DNA from: Polynucleobacter sp. UB-Piko-W3 | GTDB lineage: Bacteria > Pseudomonadota > Gammaproteobacteria > Burkholderiales > Burkholderiaceae | Reading direction: 5' to 3' | Assembly (NCBI RefSeq): GCF_018881635.1 | Contig: NZ_JACVPY010000002.1 | Coordinates: 455,330-519,329, forward strand | Length of the DNA: 64,000 bases | Shown here: positions 15,530 to 25,900 of the stretch, piece after piece | How the letters are laid out: each line of letters opens with the position of its first letter | Numbering within the stretch: position 1 is the first letter of the stretch | Made by a program: the position numbers and the translations under genes | The notes under the pieces: generated by a model | What the model was told of the DNA's origin: nothing | The model's database searches: none | What the model saw: only the letters and a program-made list of their open reading frames with translations

Positions 15530-15904
15530 TTAAGTAATGAGATGTCCATTTAATTCTCGGATGCGCTCATCTACGTAATAACCACCACATTCCGTGTAAC
15601 GGAGGTATTTGCATCCGCAATGCTTACATTCATAGACGTCAGACTTGTTGTAGGGGTGGAAGGATATGGAGATTGGGGCATCCTTGGACCATATATTGGT
15701 TCCCTTGGGATGATGCTCTTCCCAGCACTCTGGGGCGTCTTCAACCCTTAGGGTTCCTATGCACTCTAGGGCCTTCGTGATAAAGCCACCAGGGACGCTT
15801 TCCCAAGCTACACAAGATAAAGATTGGCAATCAACGCACTTGCTCTTCCCCTCAAAAGATCGGGCAAATCCTAGCAATGTCTCTCGATCAACTGAATTGG
15901 TCAT
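15530..15904 (-). CDS. Cysteine-rich (zinc-ribbon-like) hypothetical protein
   Basis: This 124-aa soluble protein has two cysteine clusters that could bind zinc: CVDC (residues 23-26) near the N-terminus, followed by SLSC, and YECKHCGCKY in the C-terminal part, followed by RYTECGGYYVDERI. The middle is rich in Trp and acidic residues. The C-terminal ECKHCG...LRYTE...GGYYVDERIR pattern is one I have seen in unnamed bacterial proteins, but no function is known to me. It is a single minus-strand gene between the PDH operon and the Bug/LigJ operon, pointing into the lpdA terminator. There is no signal peptide. Confidence 0.7.
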   Translation of the reverse strand: MTNSVDRETLLGFARSFEGKSKCVDCQSLSCVAWESVPGGFITKALECIGTLRVEDAPECWEEHHPKGTNIWSKDAPISISFHPYNKSDVYECKHCGCKYLRYTECGGYYVDERIRELNGHLIT

Positions 15905-16021
15905 TTAGTGGCTATTTGGATAATCCGATGTAATGTTGTCAGAGTAAGGTATATTTTTACAAAAGAATAGATGTTAGCGCATGTATGAATACAGAGCGCC
16001 ACAAAAATGGGGACTAAAAAA

Positions 16022-16990
16022 ATGAAAAAACAATTATTGCTGCTTGCACTTTCTTGCTCGGCGCTATGTTCTGGGACTGTTTTTGCACAAAGTGCTTACC
16101 CCTGTGCAGTGGTTAAGTTTGTTTCGCCATATCCCCCTGGAGGTACAACAGATATTTTGGCTAGAATGCTGGCGCCTGGTTTAGCCAAACAGCTCGGTAC
16201 AAATGTTGTGGTTGAGAATAAGGGTGGAGCAAGCAGCAATATTGGGACTGAATTTGTGGCTAACTCAGCTTCTGATGGTTGCACTCTATTACTCGGAAAT
16301 AATACTGGTATCGTGATTAATCAAAATTTGTATAAGTTAAGAATAAATCCATCTAAAGACTTGGCAGCGGTTGCAGAAGTAGCTTCTGTACCCTTGGTGC
16401 TTTATGTGAATGCATCAGTACCTGCAAATACTGTCGGTGAGCTGGTAGAGCTTATTAAAAATAATCCTGGTAAATACAGCTATGCATCTGGCGGTAGTGG
16501 GAGTCCACAGCATCTGATGGCAGAAATGCTGAAGCTTGAAAAGCAACTAGATATGACGCATATACCCTATAGAGGGCAGGGACCAGCCATGGCTGATGTT
16601 CTTGCTGGCCAAGTACCGATTGCATTTGAGACAACAACAGCTATTTCAGCGCAGATGACATCGGGCCGTATTCGTGCGCTAGCAACAACGGGTTTAGTGC
16701 GTCCTAAAAACTTTCCAAATATTCCTACTATGAAGGAGCTTGGGTATTCGAGCTTTGTTATAGAGAATTGGTATGGCATTTTTGTTGCAGCTAAAACTCC
16801 GTCCGTTCTGATTGCGCGATTAAATCGAGCATTTAATGCTGTCATGAAGGAGCCAGAAGTTGCAGTAAGTCTGAATAAGATGGGCTCAAGTGATGTAGCA
16901 GGGACGTCAGAGCAATTTACGCAATTTATCAATAAAGAAATTCCATATTGGGAGTCTTTGGTTAAGCGCACAGGCGCAACAGTGGATTAA
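16022..16990 (+). CDS. Bug-family (TctC) periplasmic substrate-binding protein 1
   Basis: A signal peptide (MKKQLLLLALSCSALCSG.. ending VFA) precedes a Bug/TctC domain with the usual SPYPPGGTTDILARML start, VVENKGGASSNIGTE and HIPYRGQGPA motifs. The family captures carboxylic acids in the periplasm, normally for tripartite tricarboxylate transporters. The ATG at 16022 is preferred over 16007 because GGGGA sits 8 bases before it. Two cysteines (YPC in the mature N-terminus and DGC about 50 residues later) are shared with the last gene of the operon (21343) and could form a disulfide. It is the first gene of the seven-gene operon. The ligand is unknown. Confidence 0.9.
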   Translation: MKKQLLLLALSCSALCSGTVFAQSAYPCAVVKFVSPYPPGGTTDILARMLAPGLAKQLGTNVVVENKGGASSNIGTEFVANSASDGCTLLLGNNTGIVINQNLYKLRINPSKDLAAVAEVASVPLVLYVNASVPANTVGELVELIKNNPGKYSYASGGSGSPQHLMAEMLKLEKQLDMTHIPYRGQGPAMADVLAGQVPIAFETTTAISAQMTSGRIRALATTGLVRPKNFPNIPTMKELGYSSFVIENWYGIFVAAKTPSVLIARLNRAFNAVMKEPEVAVSLNKMGSSDVAGTSEQFTQFINKEIPYWESLVKRTGATVD

Positions 16991-17010
16991 AAATAAAAGA
17001 GGATAGCAAC

Positions 17011-17676
17011 ATGAATAATGGTTATGAAATTAATCCAAGAAAAGAGGCTTTTAAGGAGGGGATCGTAGCTCTGACGGGATTGGCAACCTCGGTTGTCAGT
17101 GATGTATTGGGTCGGACTATTGGTGCAGTCAATATATTGCCGGTGAATAAGTCGCCAGTTTCCGTATGCGGTAATGCTGTCACAGTCAGCGTTAGGGCTG
17201 GCGATAACTTGATGATTCATAAAGCGCTACAAATCCTTCAGCCAGGGGATGTGCTGGTGGTTGATGGTGGAGGAGATATCTCTCGAGCATTATTTGGTGA
17301 AATCATGATGACTGTTGCTAAATCAAGAGGCGCAGTTGGTGTAGTTTTTGATGCAGCGATTCGGGATGTTGAGGCTTTTGAAAAGCATCGCTTTCCATGC
17401 TGGGCCCGTGGCGTCAATATGCGTGGCCCCCTTAAGGATGGTCCAGGCAGCATTAATGTATCCGTTTCCATAGGAGGTATGGTGATTCATCCAGGCGATG
17501 TGGTTTTGGGTGATTGCGATGGCATCATTGCTTTGTCTCCTGAGTTGGCATTAGAGGGCGCCAGATTGGGCAAAGAAAAAGAGATTACTGAGCGCAAAAC
17601 AATCCAATCCATTGTTGATGGTCAATATGATGATTCTTGGGTTGATGCAACTTTGAAACAGAAAGGCGTTATATGA
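17011..17676 (+). CDS. RraA/LigK-family protein, candidate 4-carboxy-4-hydroxy-2-oxoadipate aldolase
   Basis: The 221-aa protein has the RraA fold signatures: SVVSDVLGR near residue 30, GDNLMIHKAL, PGDVLVVDGGGD, and the catalytic loop GVVFDAAIRDVEAF with the Arg-Asp pair. LigK-type class II aldolases have a D-x20-R-D metal and substrate pattern; here the first acid is Glu (GEIMM..). GDNLMIH closely resembles the LigK segment. Together with the LigJ-like gene downstream it would split 4-carboxy-4-hydroxy-2-oxoadipate into pyruvate and oxaloacetate. An AGAGGA site precedes the ATG, and the stop overlaps the next start (ATGA). It could act on another oxo-acid, so the specific reaction is inferred. 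Confidence 0.78.
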   Translation: MNNGYEINPRKEAFKEGIVALTGLATSVVSDVLGRTIGAVNILPVNKSPVSVCGNAVTVSVRAGDNLMIHKALQILQPGDVLVVDGGGDISRALFGEIMMTVAKSRGAVGVVFDAAIRDVEAFEKHRFPCWARGVNMRGPLKDGPGSINVSVSIGGMVIHPGDVVLGDCDGIIALSPELALEGARLGKEKEITERKTIQSIVDGQYDDSWVDATLKQKGVI

Positions 17677-18623
17677 AGCTTAAGAGAATCTTGACGGTAC
17701 TTTTAAGCCTTTTTTCCCTCAATGCGATAGCGGCATTTCCAGATAAGTCGATTAAATTCTTAGTTCCTTGGCCGCCAGGCGGAGCAACTGATCAAGTTGC
17801 TCGTATCTTGGCAATACCCCTTACGAAAGAACTTGGCGTCACTGTTTTTGTTGAAAACAAGGGTGGGGCTGGTGGCAATATAGGTACGCAAGCTTTTGTC
17901 CAAGAGAAGCCAGATGGATATTCAATCTTAATGGCAACCAGTTCAACTAACGCTGCAGGCCCTCACTTATTTGCAAATCAGGGATTTGATGCTGCCAAAG
18001 ACTTCACCCCAGTAGTGTTGGTATGCACTATTCCAAATATTATGGTCGTGCCTGAGTCATCGCCGTGGAATAGCATGAAAGACTTGATTTCTGATGCTAA
18101 GCAAAACCCTGGAAAGTTTACCTATGGCTCTGCAGGTATTGGCGCATCTCAGCATTTGGCTGGCGCACAATTTAAAACTGTCACTGGTTTAGATGTTCGT
18201 CACGTTCCATACAAGGGAAGTGGTCCTGCTGCCTTAGATTTAATGGCTGGACATATCGATATGATGTTAGATACTGGCTCGCTGAACAATATCAAGGCGG
18301 GTAAATTAAAAGCCTTAGGTGTAGCTGCAGATAAGCGCATCCCTGAATTACCTAATGTCCCAACAATGAAAGAGGCTGGAGTGCCAATGGTTGCGAATGC
18401 TTGGTATGGTGTGATGTTGCCTGCTGGTGCACCAAAGGACATTACTGAGAAACTCAATGCCGCCTTCAATAAAGTCTTAAAGGATCCAGAGGTACGTAAA
18501 ACTCTTCAAGGTATTGGCGCCCAAATTGATGGCGGCTCAGTAGTCGACTTTACAAAGTTCTCACAGTCAGAGATTAAGCGCTATGAAGGCATTGTGAAAA
18601 TGTCAGGAGCCCCCAGAGAGTAA
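17673..18623 (+). CDS. Bug-family (TctC) periplasmic substrate-binding protein 2
   Basis: The 316-aa protein begins with a short signal peptide (MKLKRILTVLLSLFSLNAIA, cleaved about AIAA/F) and then the Bug domain: LVPWPPGGATDQVARI, ENKGGAGGNIGTQ, SAGIGASQHLAG and HVPYKGSGPAALDLMAG. It binds an unknown carboxylate in the periplasm. Its start overlaps the stop of the upstream RraA-family gene by 4 bp, indicating translational coupling, and the next Bug gene starts 5 bp after it. It lacks the cysteine pair of the first and last Bug proteins and so belongs to a different branch. No TctA or TctB membrane gene is present in the window. Confidence 0.9.
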   Translation: MKLKRILTVLLSLFSLNAIAAFPDKSIKFLVPWPPGGATDQVARILAIPLTKELGVTVFVENKGGAGGNIGTQAFVQEKPDGYSILMATSSTNAAGPHLFANQGFDAAKDFTPVVLVCTIPNIMVVPESSPWNSMKDLISDAKQNPGKFTYGSAGIGASQHLAGAQFKTVTGLDVRHVPYKGSGPAALDLMAGHIDMMLDTGSLNNIKAGKLKALGVAADKRIPELPNVPTMKEAGVPMVANAWYGVMLPAGAPKDITEKLNAAFNKVLKDPEVRKTLQGIGAQIDGGSVVDFTKFSQSEIKRYEGIVKMSGAPRE

Positions 18624-18628
18624 TTTTC

Positions 18629-19594
18629 ATGAAAAAAATTATATTTAGCTTCTGGCTTGTAGCCAATCTTCTTTTTGCTAGCAATCTGATGGCTCAAGAC
18701 TATCCAACTAAACCCATTAAGGTTCTAGTTGGATATGCCCCTGGTGGTGCAGTTGATTTAGTTGCTAGAGCTTTAGGACAAAGCCTCTCAGCCTCTCTTA
18801 GTCAGTCGATAGTGATTGAAAATAAGCCGGGAGCTGGGACAAATATTGCCGTTAAGCAGTTGATTGATAGTCCGCCTGATGGGTACACATTAATGGTTGC
18901 TGCAAATGCCTTGGCAGCAAATATGTCTTTATATAAGCCACAACCCTTTGATATCGATAAAGACATTACGCCAATTGCCATGATTGGCCGCGTACCTGTA
19001 GTGATCGCAACCTCTGCTGAAGGTAAGTATCAAAAACTATCTGATTTGATCAAAGCTGCAAAGGCGAATCCTGATTTGATTACCTATGGAACCCCTGGTA
19101 ACGGTGGCGCGCCACATATGGCCATGAAATTTTTCGAGCAATCCTCGGGGATTTCTTTAAAACAAATTCCCTACAAAGGTGGAGCTCCTGCGATTACAGA
19201 TCTTATCGGGGGGCAGTTGGATTTGGTTGCTGTAAATATGTTGGAAATTGCTCCGCATGTCAAAAGTGGCAAACTCAAGATTGTTGCCGTGATGAGCGCA
19301 AAGCGTTCCCCAATATTTCCAGAGGTGCCCACCGTTGCGGAATCCGGCTATCCAGGTTTTGAGGCTTCCGTGTGGTACAGCTTAATTGCACCCGCTAAGA
19401 CTCCAGCGTCTATTGTGAAGACGCTGCATACTCAAGTTGAGAAAGCCTTGCAGTCTAAAGAGATGACGGAGCGATTGGGCTCTGTTGGTGGAGAAGTAAG
19501 TCCTGGAACTATCGCTCAAGCAGCATCTTTTTTAAATTCGGAGCGTAGGCGTTACGAGAAGCTTGTGCGTGAAGCCAACATTCAACCAGACTAA
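18629..19594 (+). CDS. Bug-family (TctC) periplasmic substrate-binding protein 3
   Basis: The 321-aa protein has a signal peptide (MKKIIFSFWLVANLLFASNL.. cleaved after MAQ or nearby) and the Bug domain: VLVGYAPGGAVDLVARAL, VIENKPGAGTNIAVK, TYGTPGNGGAPHMAMKF, QIPYKGGAPAITDLIGGQ and YPGFEASVWYSLIAPAKTP. It is the third binding protein in a row and is clearly distinct from its neighbours, suggesting several different ligands. The ribosome site is weak, but the gene starts only 5 bp after the previous stop. Ligand unknown. Confidence 0.9.
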   Translation: MKKIIFSFWLVANLLFASNLMAQDYPTKPIKVLVGYAPGGAVDLVARALGQSLSASLSQSIVIENKPGAGTNIAVKQLIDSPPDGYTLMVAANALAANMSLYKPQPFDIDKDITPIAMIGRVPVVIATSAEGKYQKLSDLIKAAKANPDLITYGTPGNGGAPHMAMKFFEQSSGISLKQIPYKGGAPAITDLIGGQLDLVAVNMLEIAPHVKSGKLKIVAVMSAKRSPIFPEVPTVAESGYPGFEASVWYSLIAPAKTPASIVKTLHTQVEKALQSKEMTERLGSVGGEVSPGTIAQAASFLNSERRRYEKLVREANIQPD

Positions 19595-19630
19595 TTTTTG
19601 CTGACATCAGCACCATAAAGGAAAGAACAG

Positions 19631-20650
19631 ATGATTATTGATTGTCATGGCCACTATACAACAGCACCAAAAGCGTTGAAGGCTTGGCGTGATGCTCAGG
19701 TTGCTAATTTAAATACACCAGAGTTAGGCCCTAAGGTGTCTGATTTAAAAATTAGTGATGATGAAATTCGTGAGTCTATTGAAGAAAATCAACTGGCTAG
19801 AATGAAAGAGCGGGGCATTGATGTCACCATCTTTTCACCACAAGCCAGCTTTATGGCTCACCACATAGGTGATTTCAATACCTCAGCTACATGGGCGGCT
19901 ATATGTAACGAGCTCTGCTACCGAGTTACCCAACTTTTCCCAAAACACTTTGTAGGTGCTGCAATGCTACCCCAGTCGCCAGGGGTTGATATCAGTACCT
20001 GTTTGCCTGAGATGCGTAAATGCATGAATGAATATGGATTTGTAGGTATCAACCTGAATCCTGATCCTTCAGGGGGGCACTGGCGCGACCCGTCATTGAG
20101 TCATCCACAATGGCATCCCATTTACGAAGAAATGATCGCTTTAGATGTGCCAGCAATGATTCATGTGAGCACAAGTTGCAATGAATGCTTTCATACTGTT
20201 GGTGCCCATTATTTAAATGCAGACACTACTGCATTCATGCAATGCTTAACTTCAGATTTGTTTGCACAGTTTCCTGCTTTGCGTTTCTTAATTCCGCATG
20301 GGGGTGGAGCAGTCCCTTATCACTGGGGTCGATTTAGAGGACTTGCGAAGGATATGAACATCCCTGACATTAATCAGAAATTGCTAAACAATATTTATTT
20401 CGATACTTGTGTGTATCACCAGCCAGGGATCAATCTGCTCACCGAGGTGATTCCGACTAAGAATATTCTCTTTGCATCCGAAACGTTTGGGGCTGTGAAA
20501 GATATTGATCCTGATACTGGATTTTATTTTGATGATACGCGTCGCTATCTAAACGCGGTTGATAGCCTTAGTAATGAAGAGAAATCCATGATTTTTGAAG
20601 GCAATGCGCGTAAGGTATTTTCTAGAATTAATAATAGAATTCCAAAGTAA
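19631..20650 (+). CDS. ligJ: 4-oxalomesaconate hydratase (LigJ-like, amidohydrolase superfamily)
   Basis: The 339-aa protein matches LigJ of Sphingobium SYK-6 over its whole length as I recall it: MIIDCHGHYT start, IFSPQASFMAHHIGD, GINLNPDPSGGHW, IPHGGGAVPYHWGRFRGLA and FDTCVYHQPGINLL. The residues reported to bind zinc or act in catalysis in LigJ fall at identical positions: H6, H8, H178, E284, plus Y194 and H223. LigJ hydrates 4-oxalomesaconate to 4-carboxy-4-hydroxy-2-oxoadipate in protocatechuate 4,5-cleavage. It lies between Bug genes and a second RraA-family gene and has an AAAGGA ribosome site. No ring-cleavage dioxygenase, LigC or LigI is nearby, so the source of its substrate is open. 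Confidence 0.85.
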   Translation: MIIDCHGHYTTAPKALKAWRDAQVANLNTPELGPKVSDLKISDDEIRESIEENQLARMKERGIDVTIFSPQASFMAHHIGDFNTSATWAAICNELCYRVTQLFPKHFVGAAMLPQSPGVDISTCLPEMRKCMNEYGFVGINLNPDPSGGHWRDPSLSHPQWHPIYEEMIALDVPAMIHVSTSCNECFHTVGAHYLNADTTAFMQCLTSDLFAQFPALRFLIPHGGGAVPYHWGRFRGLAKDMNIPDINQKLLNNIYFDTCVYHQPGINLLTEVIPTKNILFASETFGAVKDIDPDTGFYFDDTRRYLNAVDSLSNEEKSMIFEGNARKVFSRINNRIPK

Positions 20651-20662
20651 GTGAGGGATATG

Positions 20663-21334
20663 ATGACGTCCGAAGAGTTTGATCATTTGTACAGGGGCCG
20701 ATTGGAGAAATTGGCCACTTCAAATTTGAGCGATGCTCTTGATAAGTTAGGTATTGCGGCCGCCGTGATCGGTATTGTTCCGCAGTGGGGTAAGACTAAA
20801 GTAATTGGTAGGGCAATTACGATCCGAATGATTGCTGCAGGCGCTGCCCAAAGCAAGGCTCATCTCGGTGTCGACGCTATCTTTTCTGCATCTCCTGGTG
20901 ATGTGATTGTGATTGATAACCGTGGTGATCTGAACAACAACTGTTGGGGTGAGATTCTCTCGATGGGAGCTTTGCAAAAAAAGATCTCAGGGGTAGTGGT
21001 CGATGGCGCCGTTCGTGATGTCGATACCTGCGAAGAATTCGGATTCCCAGTACATGCAAGAGGTACAGTCCCCATCACTGCTCGAGGACGCATAGTTCAA
21101 GAGGCCTGGAATATCCCCGTTAGGATTGGAAATATTCCCGTATTGCCCGGTGATGTGATTGTTGCTGACGTCAACGGAGTCGTAGCGATTCCTGCTGGCA
21201 AGATTAAAGAGGTATTAGATGCAGCGGAGAATATTGCTGCCAAAGAGCTAGCAATGGTTGAAGCATTAAGAGCAGGGCAGTCAATTCTTGATGTGGATAA
21301 GCAATTTAACTACGAACAAATGTTGAAAAGTTAG
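20663..21334 (+). CDS. RraA-family protein 2 (LigK-like aldolase fold)
   Basis: The protein of 223 aa shows the RraA pattern: NLSDALDKLG, AGAAQSKAHLGVDA, PGDVIVIDNRGD, GEILSMGA, VVVDGAVRDVDTCEEFGFPVHARG (Arg-Asp pair) and LPGDVIVADVNGVVAIP. It is only distantly similar to the RraA-family protein at 17011, so the two are not a recent duplication. It may be the second aldolase of an oxo-diacid pathway or act on a different hydroxy-acid. The start at ATG 20663 is chosen because GAGG lies 6 bases upstream; a GTG at 20651 directly after the ligJ stop is also possible. Not the ribonuclease regulator RraA itself, judging from the aldolase-type Arg-Asp. Confidence 0.8.
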   Translation: MTSEEFDHLYRGRLEKLATSNLSDALDKLGIAAAVIGIVPQWGKTKVIGRAITIRMIAAGAAQSKAHLGVDAIFSASPGDVIVIDNRGDLNNNCWGEILSMGALQKKISGVVVDGAVRDVDTCEEFGFPVHARGTVPITARGRIVQEAWNIPVRIGNIPVLPGDVIVADVNGVVAIPAGKIKEVLDAAENIAAKELAMVEALRAGQSILDVDKQFNYEQMLKS

Positions 21335-21342
21335 GCGCCGAT

Positions 21343-22323
21343 ATGAATTCAATGTATGTCCCGAGAATGATTTTAAAAACTCTTTGCTTGATCTGTTTTG
21401 GATTGAGTGCTCAATTGGTATACGCCCAGTACCCATGCCCTGTCATCAAAATCATTTCGCCTTATCCACCTGGTGGGGCGAGTGATGTTCTCGCAAGAAT
21501 GTTAGTTCCTGCACTATCAAAACAATTAAATGCCAGTGTGATTGTTGAAAATAAGACGGGTGCCAGCGGCAATATTGGTACTGACTTTGTGAGTAGTGCT
21601 GCCGGCGATGGTTGTACTTTATTGCTCGGCAATAGCACAGGCGTTGTCATTAATCGGAATCTATACAAACTTCGCAATGACCCCATTACTAGCTTGAGGC
21701 CAGTGGCTGAGATAGCTGCAGTACCGATGGTGCTCTATGTTAATTCATCGGTTCCTGCAAACTCTGTCGCAGAGTTAATCGCTTTGATTAAGAAGGAGCC
21801 AGGCAAATATAGTTTTGCTTCCCCAGGTAGCGGCAGTACTCATCATCTTTTAGGCGAATTACTCAAGCTTGAGCAAAAGCTGGATATGACTCACATTCCA
21901 TACAGAGGCTCTGGACCAGCAATTGTCGATGTACTGGCTGGTCAAGTGCCGATGGCATTTGAGTCTACTAGTGCAATGGTTCCTCACTTAAATAGCGGTA
22001 AGGTGAGGGCGCTTGCAACTACTGGAGCGGTGCGAGCAAAAAATTTGCCAGATGTTCCTACTATGAAGGAGCTTGGATACCCTAAGTTCGTTGTAGAAAA
22101 TTGGTATGGCATCTTTGTTCCAGCCAAAACGCCAACAGCACTGGTTAATCAGTTAAATAAAGAAATTAATAAAATATTGGCCTCGAGTGAGGTTGCCGAG
22201 AGCTTATCGAAGATGGGTTCTTTAAATAGCGAACAAACTCCCGAGCAATTTGCAGCGTTTGTCAAAAAGGAGATCCCTTACTGGGAGCTACTGGTTAAGC
22301 AGTCTGGCGCAACTGCAGAATAG
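21343..22323 (+). CDS. Bug-family (TctC) periplasmic substrate-binding protein 4, paralogue of protein 1
   Basis: The 326-aa protein has a signal peptide ending LVYAQ and a Bug domain nearly parallel to the first protein of the operon: both begin the mature part with QYPC/AYPC, share SPYPPGG, DGCTLLLGN, NLYKLR, KLDMTHIPYRG and VPTMKELGY, and keep the same two cysteines. The pair therefore arose by duplication and brackets the operon. It converges on the phasin gene with only 8 bp between stops. The start may be one of several in-frame ATGs (21343, 21352, 21367); the first is kept as it lies 8 bp after the previous stop. Ligand unknown. Confidence 0.9.
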   Translation: MNSMYVPRMILKTLCLICFGLSAQLVYAQYPCPVIKIISPYPPGGASDVLARMLVPALSKQLNASVIVENKTGASGNIGTDFVSSAAGDGCTLLLGNSTGVVINRNLYKLRNDPITSLRPVAEIAAVPMVLYVNSSVPANSVAELIALIKKEPGKYSFASPGSGSTHHLLGELLKLEQKLDMTHIPYRGSGPAIVDVLAGQVPMAFESTSAMVPHLNSGKVRALATTGAVRAKNLPDVPTMKELGYPKFVVENWYGIFVPAKTPTALVNQLNKEINKILASSEVAESLSKMGSLNSEQTPEQFAAFVKKEIPYWELLVKQSGATAE

Positions 22324-22331
22324 TTCTTTAA

Positions 22332-22865
22332 TTATTTCTTTTTAGCTGTCTTCATCGCCTTATCAGTAGCACTATTGAGATTAGTCTGAGCAACATTCAC
22401 TGCATGCTTCACAGCCTTTTGACTGTTTTCATATACGTTGTTAGCAGAAGCAATGGCTTGCTTCATTGCGTCAATGGCAGCATCAGAACCAGCAGGGGCA
22501 TTCTGAGTCCACTCTTCCACTAAAGCATTGATCTTTTGCTGGCCTAGCTGAAACTCTTTTTCAGCAGATTTAGTAAAGTTGTTTTGAGTTTCATGAGCCA
22601 AGTCATATAAGTGACGACTGTAAGCCATGATCTTTTCAGCCATTGGTTGAACAGCTTCTGCTTGGTGGGCGAGGAGCTGTTGGATATCTTTCACTTCCAA
22701 AGCTTTCTTAGCGCTCGTCATGCTGTCACTCAAACTTTGCTTTGCAATATGCATATTGAGTTCAACTAATTTTTCAATGCTTTGGAGTGCTTGATTTGTG
22801 AGACTGCTCAAGGTTTCTAAATTCGCCTTTTGCGCCGCAGCCAATTGTTCTGGTGTTAAGTTCAT
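22332..22865 (-). CDS. phaP: Phasin family protein (PHB granule-associated)
   Basis: The 177-aa, helix-rich, mostly hydrophilic protein begins NLTPEQLAAAQKANLETL and ends with a lysine-rich tail (KAMKTAKKK), as in betaproteobacterial phasins that coat polyhydroxybutyrate granules. SLTNQALQSIEKLVELN and EVKDIQQLLAHQAEAVQPMAEK are typical phasin segments. Phasins control granule size and shield cytoplasmic proteins. No phaC is in the window, though 3-hydroxybutyryl-CoA dehydrogenase is at 34 kb. An inverted repeat lies about 80 bp upstream. Confidence 0.9.
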   Translation of the reverse strand: MNLTPEQLAAAQKANLETLSSLTNQALQSIEKLVELNMHIAKQSLSDSMTSAKKALEVKDIQQLLAHQAEAVQPMAEKIMAYSRHLYDLAHETQNNFTKSAEKEFQLGQQKINALVEEWTQNAPAGSDAAIDAMKQAIASANNVYENSQKAVKHAVNVAQTNLNSATDKAMKTAKKK

Positions 22866-25075: not shown

Positions 25076-25900
25076 CTAGGCTAGTGAGCCTGGCTCGGTC
25101 GTTTTAGGTTTGTAACCCAGCCCTTTAGAAATTTGTAGGGCAGTATCCTGCAAGGCTTTGAGCCAGTCTGCTTGCATGCGATCTGTAGGTGAGCTGAGTG
25201 ATAGACCTGCAACCAATTTTCCAGTGTCATCCAAAATAGCAGCAGCGAAACAGCTTACGCCGAGTTCTAACTCTTCATCATCGCGGGCATTGCCTTCTTT
25301 TCGGACTTGATTGAGGGCGGCCTCTAATTTTGTTGCATCAGTAATGCTATTGCGAGTGTGTCCTGATAAGCCAGTACGAGTGACATAGGCGCGAACTTGA
25401 TTGGCATCATCGCTTGATAAAAATAATTTACCAACGGAGGTGAGGTGTAGTGGAGCCCTGCCACCGATAGCACGAACCACTTGCATGCCAGAGCGTTCGC
25501 TATAAGCGCGATCGATATAAACGATTTCATCACCTTGGCGTACCGATAGATTGATGGTCTCGCCAGTGAGTTTATGTAAAGTGCGCATGGGAGCTTGAGC
25601 TGCCTCGCGAACCGAGAGTCTTGCCTTCACTAAGTTACCAAGCTCTAAGAGTTTTAGGCCAAGTCGATAAGTGCCGCCATCGCCCCGTTCAACTAAACGG
25701 CAGGCAACCATATCATTCAGAATGCGGTGGGCAGTAGAGGGGTGAAGACCAGTTTGCTCGGCCAAATTTTTGAGGCTGCTCGATTCTTCTTGCTCAGCTA
25801 AGGCATCGAGCAGATTCATCATCCGCTCGACTACCTGGATGGCTGTTTTAGCAACTTCCCCAGTGCCTCTGGCATTTTTGACAGCTTTAGTCGTGCTCAT
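25076..25900 (-). CDS. IclR-family transcriptional regulator
   Basis: The 274-aa protein has an N-terminal winged HTH (about 25-85: RMMNLLDALAEQEESSSLKN then TGLHPSTAHRILNDMV) and an IclR effector domain (GAF-like) with GRAPLHLTSVGKLFLS, GLSGHTRNSI and DDEELELGVSCFAAAI. IclR regulators usually control catabolism of aromatics, glyoxylate or related acids. It is a single gene between pbpG and pyrD; its target is not obvious here. The LigJ/Bug operon 3 kb away is a possible target, by family habit only. Confidence 0.93.
   Translation of the reverse strand: MSTTKAVKNARGTGEVAKTAIQVVERMMNLLDALAEQEESSSLKNLAEQTGLHPSTAHRILNDMVACRLVERGDGGTYRLGLKLLELGNLVKARLSVREAAQAPMRTLHKLTGETINLSVRQGDEIVYIDRAYSERSGMQVVRAIGGRAPLHLTSVGKLFLSSDDANQVRAYVTRTGLSGHTRNSITDATKLEAALNQVRKEGNARDDEELELGVSCFAAAILDDTGKLVAGLSLSSPTDRMQADWLKALQDTALQISKGLGYKPKTTEPGSLA

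What the first reader, a model, noticed from the sequence alone, without database searches (positions are those of the whole stretch)
16022..22323. Seven-gene operon: four Bug binding proteins, two RraA/LigK-like proteins and a LigJ-like hydratase
All seven genes run on one strand with gaps between -4 and 36 bp. The hydratase keeps the LigJ metal and catalytic residues at identical positions (H6, H8, H178, Y194, H223, E284), and the two RraA-fold proteins keep the Arg-Asp aldolase pair. That would turn 4-oxalomesaconate into pyruvate plus oxaloacetate. Yet no ring-cleavage dioxygenase, LigC or LigI accompanies them, and four periplasmic receptors are present without any TctA/TctB membrane subunits. 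I infer that the bacterium imports ready-made carboxylated ring-cleavage products, for example photo-oxidised humic or lignin material, rather than the aromatics themselves.
Basis: partly seen in the sequence, partly recalled or inferred. Interest (0 to 1): 0.7.

Follow-up and report, generated by a model that had tools for sequence, protein, structure and literature searches.

The report
Uptake-and-split operon for oxo-tricarboxylic acids
A bacterium, likely a Polynucleobacter, carries a conserved gene cassette that resembles the last two steps of lignin-ring breakdown but holds none of the ring-opening steps, and the cassette is predicted to import a ready-made small organic acid and split it into fuel for central metabolism.

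Summary
The seven genes are there, on one strand, with gaps of -4 to 36 bp. The genome (2.05 Mb, by inference Polynucleobacter) has no LigA, LigC relative, canonical LigI or LigK. It has 45 TctC receptors but two TctA, so receptors without neighbouring TctAB are normal there. Of 121 genus genomes, 13 carry this LigJ clade and none of these has LigA. The core is RraA1-Bug2-LigJ; other genes vary. The cassette usually sits between lpdA/c6 and a phasin gene; seven relatives have that site empty.

Two corrections. Neither RraA protein is a LigK: both have Glu where LigK has Asp102, and RraA1 is of the PRK06201 subfamily. This LigJ keeps all six catalytic residues but has changed R71 to Q, M285 to T and R290 to K, fixed in 89 of 89 other LigJ aligned. 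All 16 genus genomes with LigJ but no LigA have an RraA1-type protein; the 7 with LigA have LigK.

I read it as an uptake, hydrate and cleave cassette for a KCH-like acid. The exact acid, and every activity, is untested. New variant of a known kind.

The parts
15530..15904 (-). c6: 124-aa Cys-rich protein, divergent from the operon; possible partner, not counted in the operon
   Evidence: no Pfam match at 0.01; upstream of 11 of 11 cassettes with RraA1, in L124 with a LysR gene between; present in 39 of 121 genus genomes, including 13 of 13 with this LigJ clade
16022..16990 (+). Bug1, TctC-type periplasmic receptor (ORF open from ATG 16007)
   Evidence: PF03401 231 bits; in 7 of 11 cassettes
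17011..17676 (+). RraA1, PRK06201-type RraA-fold protein, predicted pyruvate aldolase of the cassette (core gene)
   Evidence: NF004850 244 bits, cut-off 231; keeps R40, N71, H75, R123, D124, G144, K147, E199 of 3NOJ but has E at 102, P at 145 and K at 195; in 11 of 11 cassettes, which were defined by it
17673..18623 (+). Bug2, TctC-type receptor (core gene)
   Evidence: PF03401 233 bits; in 11 of 11 cassettes; also found alone beside c6 in 4 other loci
18629..19594 (+). Bug3, TctC-type receptor
   Evidence: PF03401 231 bits; in 9 of 11 cassettes and beside LigJ in L125 and L132
19631..20650 (+). LigJ-clade hydratase (core gene)
   Evidence: 577 bits to 2gwg, 463 to 6dxq; six catalytic residues kept; R71Q, M285T, R290K; own clade, support 1.0
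20651..21334 (+). RraA2, second and more divergent RraA-fold protein, accessory
   Evidence: PF03737 126 bits; keeps H75, R123, D124, G144, E199 but lacks R40, N71, D102, T145, K147, R195 of 3NOJ; in 9 of 11 cassettes; model fold nearest 3k4i, with 3noj at rank 7
21343..22323 (+). Bug4, TctC-type receptor
   Evidence: PF03401 213 bits; in 9 of 11 cassettes
15905..22331 (.). span occupied by the cassette between c6 and the phasin gene (22332-22865 -); in seven relatives c6 and phasin lie 20-152 bp apart
   Evidence: L207-L213

Best explanation
This is a conserved cassette, likely of the genus Polynucleobacter, that is predicted to capture a ready-made unsaturated oxo-acid related to 2-keto-4-carboxy-3-hexenedioate (KCH) with Bug receptors, to add water to it with a LigJ-clade hydratase, and to split the product with RraA1. 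The receptors would hand the acid to one of the two TctAB channels encoded elsewhere in the genome (inferred). LigJ would add water across the C=C bond (inferred from the kept metal and catalytic residues). RraA1, an RraA-fold protein of the PRK06201 subfamily that stands where LigK stands in the full pathway, would act as a class II aldolase and cleave the hydroxy-oxo acid to pyruvate plus an oxo-acid such as oxaloacetate (inferred). RraA2 and the extra receptors are accessories (shown: they are absent from some cassettes). Also shown: the cassette is a conserved unit under purifying selection, in a genome without LigA, a LigC relative or LigK. I think the acid is close to KCH but probably not KCH itself, because two arginines that are otherwise nearly fixed have changed.
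For: Core RraA1-Bug2-LigJ in 11 of 121 genus genomes. LigJ clade in 13 of 121, LigA in 7 of 121, overlap 0. RraA1-type protein (at least 57% identity, a threshold I set after seeing the table) in 16 of 16 genomes with LigJ but no LigA, against 9 of the other 105 (relatedness not corrected). LigK beside LigJ in the 7 LigA genomes and in none of the other LigJ loci. Catalytic residues of LigJ complete. RraA1 keeps R123, D124, E199, N71, H75, K147. In relative G030 an RraA1-type gene lies in an operon with TcuA (tricarballylate dehydrogenase, 583 bits, cut-off 369), a PrpF-family protein, MmgE/PrpD and Bugs, which fits a polycarboxylate. In L007 a LigJ of the ordinary clade follows RraA1-Bug2-Bug3-SBP3, which fits a substrate near that of ordinary LigJ. 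R71Q, M285T, R290K in the clade. dN/dS 0.016-0.072.
Against: No activity, ligand or expression data. Both RraA proteins lack Asp102, the first part of the D-X20-R-D motif (recalled), so aldolase activity is not assured. No PrpF-family isomerase in the genome; but 4 of 7 LigA genomes also lack one, so this cuts both ways. In the clade R71 is kept in 7 of 85 and R290 in 3 of 85 listed members, and one of 35 listed outsiders has K at 290, so these changes may be recent and neutral. R71, M285 and R290 were picked by me from 20 differing positions; whether they touch the substrate was not tested. L007 keeps all three in the same operon context, which fits the rival that the substrate is KCH itself. 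RraA1-type genes also occur without LigJ (6 of 25 genomes with one). The co-occurrence is not corrected for shared ancestry.
Confidence: 0.5

Rival explanations
1. One reading: the cassette imports oxalomesaconate, KCH or 4-carboxy-4-hydroxy-2-oxoadipate itself and runs the unchanged lower half of the protocatechuate/gallate 4,5-cleavage pathway to pyruvate plus oxaloacetate.
For: LigJ score and catalytic residues; L007 has an ordinary-clade LigJ, with R71, M285 and R290, in the same operon context; no LigA in the genome.
Against: No LigU/GalD-family isomerase, though 4 of 7 LigA genomes lack it too; R71Q, M285T, R290K; aldolases are not LigK.
Confidence: 0.3
2. The genes are a loose neighbourhood: RraA1 is a general oxaloacetate decarboxylase, LigJ acts on an unrelated small acid, and the orphan Bugs are sensors rather than uptake receptors.
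For: Bug1, Bug3, Bug4, RraA2 and the SBP_bac_3 gene come and go between cassettes; RraA1-type genes occur in several other operons; a signalling role for overrepresented Bugs has been suggested (PMC5812351, abstract passage).
Against: RraA1-Bug2-LigJ stay together in 11 of 11 cassettes at more than one chromosomal place; 16 of 16 LigA-less LigJ genomes hold an RraA1-type gene.
Confidence: 0.1
3. Metabolite repair: LigJ plus RraA1 return the pyruvate-oxaloacetate aldol adduct and its dehydrated form to pyruvate and oxaloacetate inside the cell; the receptors are incidental.
For: 4-carboxy-4-hydroxy-2-oxoadipate is formally the pyruvate-oxaloacetate aldol adduct (chemistry, recalled); the operon follows the pyruvate dehydrogenase genes.
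Against: Patchy presence, 13 of 121 genomes, is unlike a housekeeping repair; Bug2 is in 11 of 11 cassettes; the place beside lpdA is empty in seven relatives.
Confidence: 0.05
4. A decaying relic of a former full protocatechuate 4,5-cleavage operon.
For: The hydratase belongs to the family of that pathway.
Against: dN/dS 0.016-0.072; the LigJ clade is separate with a long stem (0.31, support 1.0) and its RraA proteins fall outside the LigK clade.
Confidence: 0.03

Closest known systems
LigJ / PmdE (KCH hydratase, '4-oxalomesaconate hydratase') of Sphingobium SYK-6 (6dxq, 6dwv, 6dxs; organism recalled) and 2gwg
   Same: Same family and length; six metal/catalytic positions identical; 463 and 577 bits.
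   Different: Own clade; R71Q, M285T, R290K; no LigK, LigC relative, LigA or PrpF-family isomerase in the genome.
LigK / PmdF / GalC, HMG/CHA aldolase (3NOJ)
   Same: RraA fold; Arg123-Asp124 and Glu199 kept.
   Different: About 30% identity; Glu at position 102, Pro or Arg at 145; below the LigK cut-offs; separate clades.
Protocatechuate/gallate 4,5-cleavage operons (pmd in Comamonadaceae; LigA genes in 7 of 121 genomes of this genus)
   Same: Hydratase followed by an RraA-fold protein; a Bug gene upstream of LigJ in some.
   Different: The four operons looked at (L136-L138, L140; L137 is on a contig of the same length as L002) have LigK, LigI, LigA, LigB and LigC, and L140 GalD; this cassette has none of these.
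Orphan Bug/TctC receptors (Bordetella, Cupriavidus)
   Same: Many receptors, two TctA sets; same pattern as reviewed in PMC5812351 (passages seen).
   Different: Here four sit in one operon with two enzyme types; the nearest solved relatives of Bug1-Bug3 (Bug27, 2dvz, terephthalate-binding protein) do not settle the ligand.

Membership tests
LigJ KCH hydratase | Metal and catalytic residues H6, H8, H178, Y194, H223, E284 (roles recalled) | tested here: met
   all six in the window; Y194 in 101 of 102 aligned, the others in 102 of 102
LigJ KCH hydratase | R71, M285 and R290, near-fixed in other LigJ (my choice of positions, not a published criterion) | tested here: not met
   Q, T, K in the window; R, M, R in 89 of 89 others, and in 35, 35 and 34 of 35 listed outsiders
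LigJ KCH hydratase | Hydratase activity on KCH | not testable with these tools
   needs enzyme assay
LigK/PcmE CHA aldolase | NCBIfam TIGR02798 at or above 304.5 bits | tested here: not met
   127 (RraA1) and 88.3 (RraA2) bits; control L058 LigK 406.7
LigK/PcmE CHA aldolase | Asp102-X20-Arg123-Asp124 (motif recalled) | tested here: not met
   Glu-X20-Arg-Asp in both; LigK Asp in 29 of 29
LigK/PcmE CHA aldolase | Aldolase activity on CHA | not testable with these tools
   needs enzyme assay
PRK06201 RraA-like subfamily (RraA1) | NF004850 at or above 231 bits | tested here: met
   244 bits; RraA2 127.5, not a member
RraA regulator of RNase E | NF006875 at or above 136 bits | tested here: not met
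   83.8 and 65.2 bits
Protocatechuate/gallate 4,5-cleavage pathway | LigA/LigB ring-cleavage dioxygenase in the genome | tested here: not met
   no PF07746 match (which rings in 7 of 121 genus genomes); one PF02900 match, 259 aa, judged YgiD-like from recall
Protocatechuate/gallate 4,5-cleavage pathway | LigC dehydrogenase | tested here: not met
   no match to L058 LigC; no positive-control genome in that call
Protocatechuate/gallate 4,5-cleavage pathway | LigI PDC hydrolase | tested here: inconclusive
   two LigI-like proteins (L082, L083) keep the core but lack R130 and Y156 (roles recalled)
Protocatechuate/gallate 4,5-cleavage pathway | LigU/GalD isomerase (PrpF family) | tested here: not met
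   no PF04303 match in own genome; rings in 15 of 121 genus genomes, but in only 3 of the 7 LigA genomes, so it does not define the pathway in this genus
Tripartite tricarboxylate transporter (TTT) | TctC receptor domain | tested here: met
   PF03401, 213-233 bits in all four
Tripartite tricarboxylate transporter (TTT) | TctA and TctB beside the receptor | tested here: not met
   none in the operon; two TctA elsewhere

The most novel reading that the evidence does not exclude
A self-standing route for an as yet unknown environmental oxo-polycarboxylate: a LigJ subfamily re-specified at its carboxylate-binding arginines works with an uncharacterised Glu-type RraA aldolase (PRK06201) that replaces LigK, so that the lower half of an aromatic pathway has become a scavenging pathway of its own, carried as a cassette that in most carriers sits at one chromosomal place.
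Probability: 0.35. Interest if true: 0.6.

Novelty: new variant of a known kind. Interest (0 to 1): 0.45.

Why it matters
Polynucleobacter are common freshwater bacteria whose abundance follows humic matter, and one lineage was proposed to live on small photoproducts of humic matter without cleaving rings (PMC3308952, passages seen; those passages name no particular enzymes for it). This cassette is a concrete, testable candidate: three core genes, named strains that carry it, close relatives with an empty site, and a defined class of acid. It would also give a function to PRK06201 ('hypothetical protein' in NCBIfam), whose genes often lie near Bug receptors in this genus, and would warn that the annotation '4-oxalomesaconate hydratase' does not by itself show aromatic degradation.

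Tried and rejected
Looking for a hidden full pathway in the genome found none of the parts searched: LigA none, LigB family only a protein judged YgiD-like, LigC relative none, PrpF none, LigI-like proteins without R130 and Y156.

c6 as an operon-specific partner: rejected as specific, because 26 of its 39 genomes lack this LigJ clade, though it lies upstream of 11 of 11 cassettes. The IclR gene at 25076-25900 as regulator: not favoured, since it keeps its place three genes from phasin in seven relatives without the cassette; the sister locus L001 instead has a divergent LysR. Promoter and terminator scans gave fewer hits than shuffles. GC content is only slightly lower in the operon (0.445; 0.482 upstream, 0.460 downstream), so no clear sign of recent foreign origin. 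The single-sequence fold of RraA1 was poor (pLDDT 41) and was not used; the RraA2 fold (pLDDT 70) only confirms the RraA fold. Searches of solved structures with Bug1-Bug3 did not settle a ligand; Bug4 was not searched there.

Literature: Polynucleobacter with oxalomesaconate gave 1 listing, a soil metagenome paper not opened; with 4-carboxy-4-hydroxy-2-oxoadipate 0; with protocatechuate and lignin 1. Passages seen of PMC12314914, PMC5065237, PMC7597016, PMC3308952, PMC5812351, PMC10269884, PMC12746152; search listing only for all others. Against the reading that the genus does not cleave rings: PMC10269884 (passages seen) infers ring-cleavage genes in Amazonian Polynucleobacter and reports that a pathway for humic compounds was found in another P. 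asymbioticus strain; our own 7 LigA genomes agree. Recalled, not read: Mazurkewich 2014 (motif), Hobbs 2012 (LigI residues), Hogancamp 2018 (LigJ residue roles).

Limits and dropped rows: the genus sample is 121 genomes drawn from a larger group; 5 of the 13 clade genomes are 73-88% complete. One search kept the best 80 of at least 589 loci. The Fisher values are uncorrected for relatedness and use an identity threshold (57%) set after seeing the table; left out of the RraA1-type count were G101 (two pieces, 55%), G106 (a 54-residue piece, 65%), G087 (40%) and G117 (39%). G052 also holds a second, contig-end LigJ piece of 79% (G052:C150), not counted; the gene caller did not show it in L139. 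In one search pairs with saturated dS gave no ratio and were left out, and two Bug1 rows (L124, L131) are paralogues. In one search two distant RraA1-like proteins (38-40%) have Ala or Val, not Glu, at position 102. In one search only about every twelfth listed database homologue was kept. The contig of L125 ends about 0.5 kb after LigJ, so its cassette cannot be judged. My gene caller picks long antisense frames in high-GC loci, so that call was not used for gene order.


Full report
WHAT IS THERE. Window 16007-22323 holds seven + strand genes: Bug1, RraA1, Bug2, Bug3, LigJ, RraA2, Bug4, with gaps of 20, -4, 5, 36, 0 and 8 bp. Pfam calls four TctC, two RraA-like and one Amidohydro_2.

WHERE IT IS. 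The genome (G000) has 2,048,732 bases in 9 contigs, 99.94% complete. Its genus is Polynucleobacter by inference: close RraA1 relatives carry that name on contigs whose lengths equal those of genus genomes fetched here (962199 = MWH-Berg-3C6, 1921418 = AP-Kolm-20A-A1, 2231578 = MWH-Aus1W21).

WHOLE-GENOME CHECK. TctC: 45. TctA: 2, each with a TctB-sized ORF upstream, one also with a TctC. RraA family: 2, both in the operon. Amidohydro_2: 5 over the cut-off. LigA: none. LigB family: one 259-aa protein that I judge YgiD-like from recall. LigC relative: none (that call had no positive-control genome). PrpF family (LigU, GalD): none. Two LigI-like proteins, each beside a Bug gene (L082, L083), keep the histidines and Asp248 of LigI but not R130 and Y156 (roles of these residues recalled); the best NCBIfam match of L082 is 4-sulfomuconolactone hydrolase, below cut-off. 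Intradiol and other extradiol dioxygenase families were not searched. Receptors without their own membrane subunits are common in beta-proteobacteria: B. pertussis has 76-79 Bug and two TctAB sets (PMC5812351, passages seen).

CONSERVATION. Of 121 genus genomes, 13 have a LigJ of 86% identity or more, 10 have one of 73-76%, and 7 have LigA. All 7 LigA genomes are among the 10; none is among the 13. Eight of the 13 are at least 98% complete, five 73-88%. Regions around LigJ show 11 cassettes with RraA1, window included. In these 11, Bug2 and LigJ are in 11; Bug3, RraA2 and Bug4 in 9 each; Bug1 in 7; an SBP_bac_3-type gene in 6. The other 2 of the 13 (L125, L132) have Bug3-LigJ (the L125 contig ends there), and both genomes hold an RraA1-type gene of 65-66% elsewhere. 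In 8 of 11 the cassette lies between lpdA-c6 and a phasin gene; in 3 (L124, L131, L133) it lies elsewhere, with c6 still upstream, in L124 with a LysR gene between. In 7 of 12 c6 regions that I fetched, lpdA-c6-phasin are directly joined, with 20-152 bp between c6 and phasin (L207-L213), which is the empty site. In 4 of the other 5, c6 is divergent from a lone Bug2 of 89-90%; in L215 my gene caller did not label c6. dN/dS of the seven genes against relatives is 0.016-0.072 where dS could be estimated.

THE HYDRATASE. In an alignment of 102 distinct LigJ (108 collected), the 13 clade members form one group with support 1.0 and stem 0.31. All six catalytic positions are kept (Y194 in 101 of 102). 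At 20 of 217 positions that are at least 95% constant in the other 89, the clade's commonest residue differs. Seven of these are 89 of 89 in the others (71, 76, 170, 243, 285, 290, 291), and the window differs at six of them. I single out three by their place: R71 is Q in 12 of 13; M285, next to catalytic E284, is T in 13 of 13; R290 is K in 13 of 13. Among 85 clade members listed from the protein database, T285 is in 85, K290 in 82 and Q71 in 78; the exceptions at 71 are among the more distant members, 82-89% identical, so the changes probably came in steps. Among 35 listed outsiders, R71 and M285 are in 35 and R290 in 34. R71 is also Arg in LigY (5vn5), whereas position 290 is not. That these arginines hold substrate carboxylates is my inference from their presumed place at the ends of barrel strands 2 and 8; it was not tested.

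THE ALDOLASES. LigK (L058) passes TIGR02798 at 406.7 bits; RraA1 reaches 127 and RraA2 88.3 against a cut-off of 304.5, while RraA1 passes PRK06201 (244, cut-off 231). By 3NOJ numbering RraA1 keeps R40, N71, H75, G101, R123, D124, G144, K147 and E199, but has E102, M104, P145 and K195. RraA2 keeps H75, G101, L104, R123, D124, G144 and E199, but has E102 and lacks R40, N71, T145, K147 and R195. Glu at 102 holds in 120 of 120 listed relatives of each (the best 120 of 5,044 and of 2,173), and Asp in 29 of 29 LigK; two distant RraA1-like proteins of the genus (38-40%) have Ala or Val there. PMC5065237 (passages seen) gives Arg123 as essential for stabilising the pyruvate enolate and Asp124 and Glu199 as metal binding; the D-X20-R-D motif is recalled. 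The three groups are separate clades (support 0.955-0.991) at about 30% identity.

TWO WIRINGS OF LIGJ. LigK stands beside LigJ in 7 genomes (L106-L110, L113, L115), which are the LigA genomes. The 16 genomes with LigJ but without LigA all have an RraA1-type protein of 64% or more, and in that search no other RraA-family match above 60 bits except RraA2. Of the other 105 genomes, 9 have an RraA1-type protein of at least 57%: 3 LigA genomes (58-61%), G022 (66%) and 5 at 57-58%; pieces in G101 and G106 and the 39-40% matches in G087 and G117 were not counted. Fisher p is 6e-14, not corrected for shared ancestry, with a threshold set after seeing the table. In L007 an ordinary-clade LigJ follows RraA1-Bug2-Bug3-SBP3, and in G030 (L135) one follows SBP3-Bug3; both keep R71, M285 and R290. 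This looks like exchange of one LigJ for another in the same place and argues that the substrate is close to that of ordinary LigJ.

WHAT ACID. Published work gives LigJ and GalB the substrate KCH, made from oxalomesaconate by LigU or GalD, and LigK or GalC the substrate CHA (PMC12314914, passages seen). The isomerase family is absent here and in 11 of 13 clade genomes; G083 has one, and G052 only a 143-position piece. It is also absent in 4 of 7 LigA genomes, and present in all 3 of the remaining LigJ genomes (G003, G025, G030), so its absence does not exclude oxalomesaconate. In relative G030 an RraA1-type gene lies in an operon with TcuA, a PrpF-family protein and MmgE/PrpD, which points to tricarboxylates. 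I therefore read the cassette as uptake, hydration and cleavage of a KCH-like oxo-polycarboxylate, with the exact acid open.

NOVELTY. PMC3308952 (passages seen) already proposed that a Polynucleobacter lineage lives on small photoproducts of humic matter and found no ring-cleavage oxygenases in one strain. PMC10269884 (passages seen) says that humic-degradation genes are strain specific in the genus. PMC7597016 (passages seen) linked TTT genes statistically to lignin-oxidation genes in Amazon water. My ten searches of the open-access library listed no title or abstract start describing a LigJ-RraA-Bug cassette without ring cleavage; I opened seven papers, by passages, and the library lacks most subscription journals. 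I rate it a new variant of a known kind.

Noticed in passing
window 15530-15904 (-): c6, a 124-aa Cys-rich protein without a Pfam match, divergent from the cassette; in 39 of 121 genus genomes, and in four loci divergent from a lone Bug2 of 89-90% identity.
   Followed up: partly
L207-L213: Empty site: lpdA-c6-phasin directly joined in seven relatives where the window has the seven-gene cassette.
   Followed up: yes
L160 (G030:C3:129000-147000): A large operon with an RraA1-type gene, a tricarballylate dehydrogenase (TcuA), a PrpF-family protein, MmgE/PrpD, CoA-transferase, MaoC, ECH and Bug receptors.
   Followed up: partly
L132:10361-11839 and L135:11589-12929: An NMT1_3 (TAXI-like) protein, Pfam-tested in L132 only, upstream of Bug3-LigJ (L132) or SBP3-Bug3-LigJ (L135), outside the usual cassette.
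   Followed up: no
L001:3497-4399 (-): A divergent LysR regulator beside RraA1 in the sister locus; the window has none there, so the cassette's regulator is unknown.
   Followed up: no
L001:6122-6961: An SBP_bac_3 solute-binding gene next to Bug3; its relatives are in 6 of 11 cassettes, not in the window's.
   Followed up: no
L082, L083 (G000:C2 near 6500 and 328000): Two LigI-like lactone hydrolases each beside a Bug gene, L083 also beside a PEP-mutase-like gene (by eye); both lack R130 and Y156 of LigI, so other lactones are likely substrates.
   Followed up: partly
G000 genome: 45 TctC receptors but only 2 TctA in a 2.05 Mb genome; not compared with the rest of the genus.
   Followed up: no
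L136 (G032): A LigA genome of only about 1.8 Mb with two LigA/LigB pairs close together.
   Followed up: no
G052:C150:4626-5546: A second, contig-end LigJ piece, 79% identical, in a genome that also has the cassette; the genome is 78% complete with 6% contamination.
   Followed up: no
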